From: Sipunculus nudus
Taxonomy: Eukaryota > Annelida > Sipuncula > Golfingiida > Sipunculidae
Assembly (NCBI GenBank): GCA_026874595.1
Contig: CM049314.1
Location: forward strand, 52,621,812 to 52,685,811
Direction: 5' to 3'
Length of the DNA: 64,000 bases
This document shows, in pieces, positions 54,004 through 57,570 of this stretch; position 1 is the first letter of the stretch; every line of letters starts with the position of its first letter. The notes below the pieces were generated by a model, which was not told the origin of the DNA, searched no databases, and worked only from the letters and a program-made list of their open reading frames with translations. A program made the position numbers and the translations under genes.

Positions 54004-54109
54004 GACTGATGCCTTGATCCAGCAGACCATCAGAAAGAAGTTCAAACAGTGTACTGTCCTTACCATAGCTCACCGCCTCCACACCATCATGGACTCTGAC
54101 AGGGTCATG
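54004..54109 (+). CDS. ABCC4: ABCC4-like transporter, exon 7 of window (NBD2 H-loop)
   Basis: After the G that completes the split Arg codon it reads [20 protein letters not shown] and [15 protein letters not shown]. The His of TIAHRL is the switch (H-loop) residue needed for ATP hydrolysis. The donor is ATG|GTAAGT at 54110, phase 0, and the next exon continues VLDEG, matching ABCC4 (IMVLDSG). The last 39 bases of this exon and the first 18 of the intron form the unit of the 57-bp array that follows. The open frame therefore runs on past the donor for about 11 more copies. The first donor is chosen because it gives the normal protein. Confidence 0.92.
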
Positions 54110-57100
54110 GTAAGTGTGTCTGTTTGTCACTGCCTCCACACCATCATGGACTCTGACAGGGTCATGGTAAGTGTGTCTGTTTGTCACCACCTCCACACCT
54201 TCATGGACTTTGACAGGGTCATGGTAAGTGTGTCTGTTTGTCACCGCCTTCACACCATCATGGACTCAGACAGGGTCATGGTAAGTGTGTCTGTTTGTCA
54301 CTGCCTCCACACCATCATTGACTCTGACAGGGTCATGGTAAATTTGTCATTTAGTCACGGCCTCCACACCATCATGGACTCTGACAGGGTCATGGTAAGT
54401 GTGTCTGTTTATCACTGCCTCCACACCATCATGGACTCAGACAGGGTCATGGTAAGTGTGTCTGTTTGTCACCGCCTCCATACCATCATGGACTCGGACA
54501 GGGTCATGGTAAGTGTGTCTGTATGTCACCGCCTTCATACCATCATGGACTCAGACAGGGTCATGGTAAGTGTGTCTGTTTGTCACCGCCTTCACACCAT
54601 CATGGACTCAGACAGGGTCATGGTAAGTGTGTCTGTTTGTCACTGTCTCCACACTATCATGGACTCAGACAGGGTCATGGTGTGTCTGTTTGTCACCGCC
54701 TCCACACCTTCATGGTCTCTGACAGGGTCATGGTAAGTGTGTCTGTTTGTCACTGCCTCCACACCATCATGGACTCTGACAGGGTCATGGTAAGTGTGTC
54801 TGTTTGTCACCACCTCCACACCTTCATGGACTTTGACAGGGTCATGGTAAGTGTGTCTGTTTGTCACTGCCTCCACACCATCATGGACTCAGACAGGGTC
54901 ATGGTAAGTGTGTCTGTTTGTCACCACCTCCACACCTTCATGGACTTTGACAGGATCATGGTAAGTGTGTCTGTTTGTCACCGCCTTCACACCATCATGG
55001 ACTCAGACAGGGTCATGGTAAGTGTGTCTGTTTATCACTGCCTCCACACTATCATTTACTCAGACAGGGTCATGGTGTGTCTGTTTGTCACCGCCTCCAC
55101 ACCTTCATGGACTCTGACAGGGTCATGGTAAGTGTGTCTGTTTGTCAATGCCTCCACACCATCATGGACTCTGACAGGGTCATGGTAAGTTTGTCATTTA
55201 GTCACGGCCTTCACACCATCATGGACTCAGACAGGGTCATGGTAAGTGTGTCTGTTTATCACTGCCTCCACACTATCATTTACTCAGACAGGGTCATGGT
55301 GTGTCATTTTGTCACCGCCTCCACACCTTCATGGACTCAGACAGGGTCATGGTATGTGTGTCTGTTTGTCACTGCCTCCACACCATCATGGACTCTGACA
55401 GGGTCATGGTAAGTGTGTCTGTATGTCACCGCCTTCACACCATCATGGACTCAGACAGGGTCATGGTATGTGTGTCTGTTTGTCACCGCCTCCACACCAT
55501 CATGGACTCTGACAGGGTCATGGTGTGTCATTTTGTCACCGCCTCCACACCATCATGGACTCTGACAGGGTCATGGTAAGTGTGTCTGTTTGTCACCATG
55601 CCCACACCATCATGGACTCTGACAGGGTCATGGTAAGTGTGTCTGTATGTCACCGCCTTCACACCATCATGGACTCAGACAGGGTCATGGTATGTGTGTC
55701 TGTTTGTCACCACCTCCACACCATCATGGACTCTGACAGGGTCATGGTAAGTGTGTCTGTTTGTCACCATGCCCACACCATCATGGACTCTGACAGGGTC
55801 ATGGTGTGTCATTTTGTCACCGCCTTCACACCTTCATGGACTCAGACAGGGTCATGGTATGTGTGTCTGTTTGTCACCACCTCCACACCATCATGGACTC
55901 TGACAGGGTCATGGTAAGTGTGTCTGTATGTCACCGCCTTCACACCATCATGGACTCAGACAGGGTCATGGTATGTGTGTCTGTTTGTCACTGCCTCCAC
56001 ACCATCATGGACTCTGACAGGGTCATGGTGTGTCATTTTGTCACCGCCTCCACACCATCATGGACTCAGACAGGAGTCATGGTATGTGTGTCTGCTTGTC
56101 ACCGCCTCCACACCATCATGGACTCTGACAGGGTCATGGTAAGTGTGTCATTTTGTCACCGCCTCCACACCATCATGGACTCAGACAGGGTCATGGTAAG
56201 TGTGTCTGTATGTCACCGCCTTCACACCATCATGGACTCAGACAGGGTCATGGTAAGTGTGTCTGTTTGTCACTGCCTCCACACCATCATGGACTCAGAC
56301 AGGGTCATGGTATGTGTGTCTGTTTGTCACCGCCTCCACACCATCATGGACTCTGACAGGGTCATGGTAAGTGTGTCATTATGTCACAGCCTGCACACCA
56401 TCATGGACTCAGACAGGGTCATGGTAAGTGTGTCTGTATGTCACCGCCTTTACACCATCATGGACTCAGACAGGGTCATGGTAAGTGTGTCTGTTTGTCA
56501 CTGCTTCCACACCATCATGGACTCAGACAGGGTTATGGTATGTGTGTCTGTTTGTCACTGCCTCCACACCATCATGGACTCTGACAGGGTCATGGTAAGT
56601 GTGTCATTTTGTCACCGCCTCCACACCATCATGGACTCAGACAGGGTCATGGTAAGTGTGTCTGTATGTCACCGCCTTCACACCATCATGGACTCAGACA
56701 GGGTCATGGTAAGTGTGTCTGTTTGTCACTGCCTCCACACCATCATTGACTCTGACAGGGTCATGGTAAGTGTGTCATTTTGTCACCGCCTCCATACCAT
56801 CATGGACTCGGACAGGGTCATGGTAAGTGTGTCTGTATGTCACCGCCTTCACACCATCATGGACTCAGACAGGGTCATGGTGTGTCTGTTTGTCACCGCC
56901 TCCACACCATCATGGACTCTGACAGGGTCATGGTAAGTGTGTCATTTTGTCACCGCCTCCACACCATCATGGACTCAGACAGGGTCATGGTAAGTGTGTC
57001 ATTTTGTCACCGCCTCGACACCATCATGGACTCAGACAGGGTCATGGTATGTGTGTCATTTTGTCACCGCCTCCACACCATCATGGACTCAGACAGGGTC

Positions 57101-57570
57101 ATGGTAAGTGTGTCATTTTGTCACCGCCTCCACACCATCATGGACTCAGACAGGGTCATGGTATGTGTGTCATTTTGTCACCGCCTCCACACCATCATGG
57201 ACTCAGACAGGGTCATGGTAAGTGTGTCATTTTGTCACCGCCTCCACACCATCATGGACTCAGACAGGGTCATGGTAAGTGTGTCTGTTTGTCACCACCT
57301 CCACACCTTCATGGACTTTGACAGGGTCATGGTAAGTGTGACTGTATGTCACCGCCTTCACACCATCATGAACTCTGACAGGGTCATGGTGTGTCTGTTT
57401 GTCACCGCCTCCACACCATCATGGACTCTGACAGGGTCATGGTGTGTCATTTTGTCACCGTCTCCACACCATCATGGACTCAGACAGGGTCATGGTATGT
57501 GTGTCTGTTTGTCACCGCCTCCACACTGTCATGGACTCAGACAGGGTCATGGTGTGTTTGTATGTTACCA
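54053..57570 (+). repeat. Tandem array, 57-bp unit = exon 7 end plus donor (TR8), intron 7
   Basis: About 62 copies counting the exon itself. The unit is CACCGCCTCCACACCATCATG and GACTCTGACAGGGTCATG (exonic part) followed by GTAAGTGTGTCTGTTTGT (intronic part). By eye about 40 copies keep GTAAGT, about 11 have GTATGT, one has GTAAAT and about 10 have GTGTGT with a 4-bp loss (53-bp units). Copies 1-10 are all exactly 57 bp, so the frame stays open to 54736. The repeat peptide is [19 protein letters not shown]. Open frames up to 376 codons here are read-through of the repeat, not separate genes. Confidence 0.97.

What the first reader, a model, noticed from the sequence alone, without database searches (positions are those of the whole stretch)
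54053..57570. A minisatellite built from an exon end and its splice donor, about 62 copies, in frame
Seen: the 57-bp unit joins the last 39 bases of exon 7 ([13 protein letters not shown], just after the H-loop) to the first 18 intron bases with GTAAGT. About 40 copies keep GTAAGT. Copies 1-10 are exactly 57 bp (19 codons) and open. Consequence: splicing at donor k instead of donor 1 to exon 8 would keep the frame and add (k-1) times 19 residues at the end of the ATPase switch region. Inference: either the splicing machinery ignores dozens of intact donors, or the gene makes a ladder of isoforms and the copy number is a source of variation between individuals. I know of no described ABC transporter with this arrangement.
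Basis: partly seen in the sequence, partly recalled or inferred. Interest (0 to 1): 0.88.

Follow-up and report, generated by a model that had tools for sequence, protein, structure and literature searches.

The report
Splice-site minisatellites throughout one transporter gene
An animal drug-transporter gene carries a 62-copy repeat made from the end of an exon plus its splice signal, and at least eight other splice sites of the same gene are copied in the same way, so the gene is crowded with spare splice signals that the cell must ignore or occasionally use.

Summary
Window 54070-57553 holds 62 copies of a 57-bp unit joining the last 39 nt of an ABCC4/MRP4-like exon to 18 nt of intron. All 62 keep GT, 40 keep GTAAGT, donors 1-11 are in frame. 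It is not a one-off. Over 154 kb of this gene, 9 of 35 tested junctions are spanned by arrays (6 donor, 3 acceptor; 7 to about 125 copies; about 450 duplicated splice sites in all). Array edges meet junctions far more often than random placement gives (7 against 0.32; 0 of 5000). The nearest paralog has the same exon boundary without an array there. The structure is known from lancelets as 'mirages', reported not to disturb splicing. The isoform-ladder reading is weakened: no detectable protein constraint on copies, a frame-breaking 4-bp deletion spread through the array, only 2 of 9 main unit lengths are multiples of 3. Best explanation: neutral, junction-seeded minisatellites removed with the intron, the first donor being used. 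No transcript data could be examined.

The parts
54004..54109 (+). Exon 7 (window numbering) of the ABCC4-like gene; its last 39 nt are copy 1 of the array; donor ATG|GTAAGT at 54109/54110
   Evidence: splice boundaries and open frame; MRP4 alignment; same boundary in paralog
54070..57553 (+). Donor-type junction array: 57-bp unit (39 exon nt + 18 intron nt), 62 copies, 40 with GTAAGT
57820..57993 (+). Exon 8, last exon, acceptor TACTAACAG|GTACTT, stop TAG
25329..26029 (+). Acceptor-type junction array: about 53-bp unit (intron end + TTTCAG + first about 24 nt of exon 4), 13 copies, the last being the true acceptor at 26005/26006
26006..26161 (+). Exon 4, begins [13 protein letters not shown] (Walker A)
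51395..51777 (+). 35-bp x 11 array ending exactly at the exon 6 acceptor; units contain TATTCAG but no exon bases (flush, not spanning)
51778..51950 (+). Exon 6 (signature motif and Walker B)
2744..2974 (+). Exon 1 (window numbering)
18722..18822 (+). Exon 2
24448..24645 (+). Exon 3
47872..47961 (+). Exon 5
1..2595 (+). Purely intronic 44-bp array (continues upstream of the window)
3296..10537 (+). Purely intronic 30-bp array, about 241 copies
14904..18453 (+). Purely intronic 30-bp array, about 119 copies
22174..23910 (+). Purely intronic 43-bp array, about 40 copies
48256..51391 (+). Purely intronic 43-bp array, about 73 copies

Best explanation
The array is a junction-seeded minisatellite ('mirage'). 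A short tandem duplication that took in the exon end, its donor and 18 intron bases arose in an ABCC4-like gene. It may have been primed by an imperfect direct repeat, TCACCGCCT in the exon and TTACCACCT in the intron (inferred from the last copy's 3' flank). It then grew by slippage or unequal exchange to 62 copies, homogenising in 4-copy blocks. The original exon copy stays the exon; copies 2-62 lie in the intron. I think splicing mainly joins donor 54109 to acceptor 57820 and the array leaves with the intron. Shown: the array, its origin from the junction, copy evolution without detectable protein constraint, the same kind of array at eight other junctions of this gene and in three other ABC loci of this genome, and a paralog with the same boundary and no array there. 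Inferred: the duplication mechanism, and which donor is used.
For: Array and donors. Gene with 8 clean exons in the window and an open frame carrying the Walker A/B, signature and H-loop motifs (motifs read by eye), best PDB match MRP4/ABCC4 (E 2e-174). Purifying selection on the coding exons between paralogs (pN 0.20, pS 0.76, dS saturated). No significant excess of synonymous change among copies (8 syn, 18 non; one-sided p 0.12 to 0.27). Higher-order period of 4 units (lag-4 identity 0.920 against 0.903; 0 of 500 shuffles). Other junction arrays in this gene (9 of 35 tested). Edges of 20 merged arrays meet junctions 7 times against 0.32 expected, 0 of 5000. Paralog C9:14.158 Mb, same boundary ATG|GTAAGG, no array at that donor. 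Junction duplications with other units in 3 of 28 ABC loci (L014, L015, L019). Published precedent.
Against: No transcript data were available, so use of donor 1 is inferred. Donor 1 has no sequence advantage: the 21 bases around it (-12 to +9) are identical in dozens of copies. The first 11 donors are in frame and open, which a ladder would need. Diversity is lower at the donor hexamer (0.057) than in the rest of the intron part (0.115), and lower at codon position 2 (0.035) than at 1 (0.077) or 3 (0.112); these could hint at constraint but rest on few events. The paralog is not free of junction duplications: 2 of 29. The junction enrichment is one gene, and its thresholds were set after the arrays had been seen.
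Confidence: 0.74

Rival explanations
1. Isoform ladder: donors 1 to 11 are used alternatively, adding 19 residues per step after the H-loop of the second nucleotide-binding domain, and copy number varies between individuals.
For: Donors 1-11 in frame and open; 9 of these 11 are GTAAGT, the hexamer of the real one. Competing identical donors are often used in part (general splicing knowledge, recalled).
Against: The unit would sit inside DRVM|VLDEG, which aligns without gap to MRP4 (that it is a core strand is recalled). No significant protein constraint on copies. Frame is lost from copy 12. Only 2 of 9 arrays of this gene have a main unit length divisible by 3.
Confidence: 0.12
2. Poison-splicing or gene-dosage element: frequent use of downstream donors gives transcripts with the stop at 54734 or a frameshift, which are degraded, so array length tunes expression.
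For: A stop at 54734 follows use of any donor from the 13th on. An intronic VNTR in another ABC gene, ABCA7, is reported to affect splicing (title and abstract start in listing only).
Against: No expression data. From donor 12 on the exon would be over 700 nt long. Lancelet mirages are reported not to disturb splicing.
Confidence: 0.09
3. Assembly artefact: the array is an error of the assembly.
For: Tandem arrays are prone to misassembly, and one published lancelet mirage was misassembled in the draft.
Against: 37 distinct units among 61, ordered 4-unit higher structure, a contig of 79.8 Mb, and nine arrays with different units anchored at splice junctions.
Confidence: 0.03

Closest known systems
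'Mirages' of lancelets (Branchiostoma): tandem repeats spanning exon-intron boundaries in Adh3, globin, troponin C and PGBD5 genes (PMC3087553 passages; PMC3902484 one passage; the original 2002 paper was not seen: one search asked for a wrong DOI, one search found it not held)
   Same: Minisatellite-like units that span a donor or an acceptor and carry the AG/GT signals into the intron; both boundary types; units of 10-160 bp there, about 34-65 bp in this gene.
   Different: Here nine spanned junctions in one gene and up to about 125 copies (globin cases: from one duplicate to 6 units; copy numbers in Adh3 not seen), seeding at junctions beyond chance, and a 1.43-Gb genome that is probably not a lancelet.
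Human internal tandem repeats at exon-intron boundaries of genes in segmental duplications (PMC2812944, passages)
   Same: Minisatellites at exon-intron boundaries that can change splicing and create introns.
   Different: About 4 copies of 30 bp on average, in recent primate paralogs; not arrays of dozens of intact splice sites across one gene.
ABCA7 intronic VNTR (PMC5954066, title and abstract start in listing only)
   Same: Tandem repeat in an intron of an ABC transporter gene, linked to splicing.
   Different: Described as intronic; I saw no statement that its unit contains an exon end or a splice donor.
Intron gain by tandem genomic duplication (PMC4974935, title and abstract start in listing only)
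   Same: Tandem duplication as a source of splice sites.
   Different: There a duplication makes a new intron; here an existing intron's splice site is multiplied.

Membership tests
Mirage (junction-spanning minisatellite) | Tandem repeat unit contains the exon-intron boundary with exon and intron bases | tested here: met
   9 of 35 junctions; E7 unit has 39 exon + 18 intron nt
Mirage (junction-spanning minisatellite) | Many repeat copies keep the AG/GT signals | tested here: met
   E7: 62 of 62 GT; x7: 22 of 22 AG; x3: 74 of 81 AG; x6: 97 of 110 GT; x9: 98 of 125 GT; E4: 11 of 13 AG; x2: only 4 of 7 GT
Mirage (junction-spanning minisatellite) | Regular splicing is not disturbed | not testable with these tools
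   No RNA data; only the intact reading frame and the conserved boundary speak for it
Mirage (junction-spanning minisatellite) | Length polymorphism, somatic instability | not testable with these tools
   One assembly only
Mirage (junction-spanning minisatellite) | Reported host: cephalochordate | tested here: inconclusive
   G000 is 1.43 Gb; a COX1-like fragment in the nuclear contig C5 reads IAVPTGIKV under table 5, which by recall is not chordate-like; no named relative could be searched
ABCC4/MRP4 transporter | ABC_membrane and ABC_tran domains with the closest solved relatives being ABCC4 | tested here: met
   PF00664, PF00005; MRP4 583 bits against ABCC5 435 bits (C-terminal 408 aa only)
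Coding tandem repeat | Copies under protein-level constraint and kept in frame | tested here: not met
   8 syn and 18 non-syn distinct changes, no significant excess of syn; frame lost from copy 12; stop at 54734

The most novel reading that the evidence does not exclude
Splice junctions themselves are preferred birthplaces of minisatellites in this lineage: something tied to transcription or splicing (exposed junction DNA, R-loop edges, template switching at the pyrimidine tract or AG|GT) seeds tandem duplications at exon edges. One gene thereby collected nine arrays and about 450 decoy splice sites, an evolving reservoir for new isoforms and new introns, with the true donor chosen by position rather than sequence.
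Probability: 0.27. Interest if true: 0.85.

Novelty: new variant of a known kind. Interest (0 to 1): 0.64.

Why it matters
Dozens of donors with identical local sequence in one intron are a natural competition experiment: splice-site strength cannot explain the choice, so position, exon definition or kinetics must. This gene and its nearest paralog also show junction duplication at many stages (2 copies in the paralog; 7, 13, 22, 26, 62, 81, about 110 and about 125 here), which makes the idea of intron gain by tandem duplication of splice sites directly testable. If seeding at junctions holds genome-wide, it is a mutational bias that would change how minisatellites in genes are read.

Tried and rejected
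Rejected: a coding repeat (frame lost). Rejected: chance similarity. Not counted as spanning: the x1 acceptor array (39 bp x 24; units lack the AG), the E6 acceptor array (flush, no exon bases), arrays starting 15-27 bp after the x8 and x11 donors, and the x6 acceptor, whose best duplicate (13 of 14 nt) beat the best of 100 shuffles but not my margin. The 30-, 43- and 44-bp arrays inside window introns: I saw no exon origin by eye and ran no test. L021's 22-nt duplicate and L036's intron-side array were not counted as junction-spanning.

Led nowhere: the species could not be named. COX1 hits were 10 bacterial-looking genes and one fragment in contig C5. A myosin search meant both for the phylum and for an unbiased count of junction arrays in other genes did not complete (27 tries). 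Two paper searches for bivalves or molluscs gave nothing relevant, and one mixed search the human case. Copy counts used a best-match regex mode that undercounts; searches are used instead. One search's random-placement tests covered 108 kb; one search repeated the test on 148 kb with placements restricted to introns.

Full report
WHAT IS THERE. Tandem Repeats Finder reports 54070-57553, period 57, 61.7 copies. Cutting the array at the exon-end motif gives 62 copies with GT in 62 of 62: GTAAGT 40, GTATGT 11, GTGTGT 10, GTAAAT 1. The unit is the last 39 nt of the exon ([13 protein letters not shown]) and 18 nt of intron. GTGTGT donors come from a 4-bp deletion; nine alignment rows lack these bases (unit 53 bp, once 54 with a 1-base insertion), and the tenth GTGTGT ends the array. 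Donors 1-11 lie at exact 57-bp steps, and the exon frame stays open to a stop at 54734.

THE GENE. Eight exons with GT/AG sites splice into one open frame of 408 aa. It matches ABC_membrane and ABC_tran, and its closest solved relatives are ABCC4/MRP4 (583 bits; ABCC5 435 bits). The window lies at G000:C9:52621812-52685811 in a 1.43-Gb assembly. In the 90 kb upstream I found 11 more exons of the same gene (x1-x11), using a human ABCC4 sequence recalled from memory as tblastn query and reading the splice sites by eye; exons further upstream were not sought. Coding exons are under purifying selection against the nearest paralog (408 codons, 69% identity, pN 0.20, pS 0.76).

NOT ONE ARRAY BUT NINE. 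I took 44 nt around each of 35 junctions and looked for a duplicate within 400 nt on the intron side, against 100 shuffles (the x1 and x7 donors were not tested, and the x2 donor was taken 4 nt off its likely site). Nine junctions are spanned. Acceptors: x3 (81, 47 bp), x7 (22, 61 bp), window exon 4 (13, mostly 53 bp). Counts; most use motifs with 2-4 mismatches and are approximate; their sum is about 450. Two more arrays end at a junction without taking in exon bases (x1 and E6 acceptors). The acceptor array on window exon 4 repeats TTTCAG plus the first bases of the Walker A exon.

MORE THAN CHANCE. In 148 kb of the gene, 20 merged short-unit arrays (unit 10-130 bp, at least 4 copies) were placed at random within introns, allowing 60 nt of exon overlap. 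The observed 7 junction contacts (6 spanning, 1 flush) compare with a mean of 0.32; none of 5000 placements reached 7. The E4, x2 and x5 arrays did not count in that test, so it is conservative; but its thresholds were set after the arrays had been seen. A smaller test on the window alone gave 3 against 0.29-0.36, p 0.003-0.005. Short-unit arrays fill 40.6% of this gene (60,052 of 147,993 bases), against 3.4% of the paralog's 28 kb and 5.6% of 27 other ABC loci. So this gene is a hotspot relative to these, and inside it arrays prefer splice junctions. A random-region control for the genome could not be fetched.

RELATIVES IN THE SAME GENOME. The closest paralog (C9:14.138-14.166 Mb) has the same exon boundaries at the eight homologous exons; its exon 7 ends ATG|GTAAGG without an array. 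Of 29 junctions tested there, 2 show a spanning duplicate: an acceptor array at 5333, and a two-copy donor duplication at the homologue of x10 (a few of the 29 boundaries are uncertain, and one listed donor lies in the last exon). Among the 28 loci outside this gene that match the exon 7-8 protein and were fetched (of 51 matches listed; the closest paralog is one of the 28, and a few may be neighbouring exons of one gene), 5 show some duplication near the exon and 3 are clear junction duplications: L015 (donor, 71 bp x 2.8), L019 (donor, about 35-40 bp, degenerate) and L014 (acceptor, 99 bp x about 15-17). Their units differ, so I infer independent origins.

HOW IT MOST LIKELY WORKS. Copies differ by 26 distinct exon-part changes, 8 synonymous and 18 not, against 20-24% synonymous expected without constraint (one-sided p 0.12-0.27). 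Lower diversity at codon position 2 and at the donor hexamer is on record but rests on few events. A period of four units stands out (0.920 against 0.903, 0 of 500 shuffles), as expected from block-wise slippage or unequal exchange. The flank after the last copy (TTACCACCT) resembles the exon start of the unit (TCACCGCCT), a plausible seed of the first duplication. I conclude that the array is a neutral by-product removed with the intron. Donor choice cannot rest on the local donor sequence, because -12 to +9 is identical in dozens of copies. I infer that the first donor wins by position or exon definition; no RNA was available. Against a selected ladder: only 2 of 9 main unit lengths in this gene (39, 57) are multiples of 3, no more than chance would give.

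WHAT IS KNOWN. Tandem repeats spanning exon-intron boundaries are named 'mirages' in lancelets: Adh3, globin, troponin C and PGBD5 genes, both boundary types, reported not to disturb splicing; length instability is reported for them too (passages of PMC3087553; one passage of PMC3902484). Human minisatellites at exon-intron boundaries are described in PMC2812944 (passages). The window meets the structural definition; normal splicing and instability are untested. In what I saw in print there is no gene with this many such arrays and no such case outside lancelets beyond the human one (nine searches; open-licence papers only, mostly listings). A genome of 1.43 Gb is far larger than Branchiostoma (about 0.5 Gb, recalled), and a COX1-like fragment in contig C5 reads [28 protein letters not shown] under table 5, which by recall resembles protostomes more than chordates; this is weak evidence.

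VERDICT. Real, correctly described, and an extreme, gene-wide case of a known but little-known structure. The isoform-ladder reading is possible but not favoured.

Noticed in passing
window 25408-26005: In most copies of the exon 4 acceptor array the AG is followed at once by donor-like sequence (such as AG|GTGGGT or AG|GCAAGT), the arrangement of ratchet (recursive) splice sites.
   Followed up: no
window 41096-41914 and 45173-45658 (minus strand): Pieces of transposase genes (DDE_1; HTH_Tnp_Tc5 with a Brinker-like domain), probably of a pogo/Tigger-type transposon, in the large intron between exons 4 and 5.
   Followed up: partly
G000 contigs C60-C89 and C123 (L044-L048): The animal assembly contains bacterial-looking contigs: nine similar CoxA genes on eight contigs, intronless ABC open frames of 632-653 aa, and on the 112-kb contig C123 genes that look like a CcoN/O/P operon by eye; symbiont or contaminant.
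   Followed up: partly
L058/L039 (paralog), donor at joined coordinate 9240, and the x10 donor upstream of the window: The homologous donor (..ACTTTATACAG|GTA) is tandemly duplicated in both paralogs although synonymous sites of their last eight exons are saturated: a shared hotspot or an old duplication.
   Followed up: partly
L019:1597-2362: An ABC paralog with a degenerate donor array at the equivalent exon end, with 11 AGGTACGT sites.
   Followed up: partly
window 3296-10537 and 14904-18453: Very long purely intronic 30-bp arrays (about 241 and 119 copies) with frames open over hundreds of codons in several frames, as the unit length is a multiple of 3.
   Followed up: no
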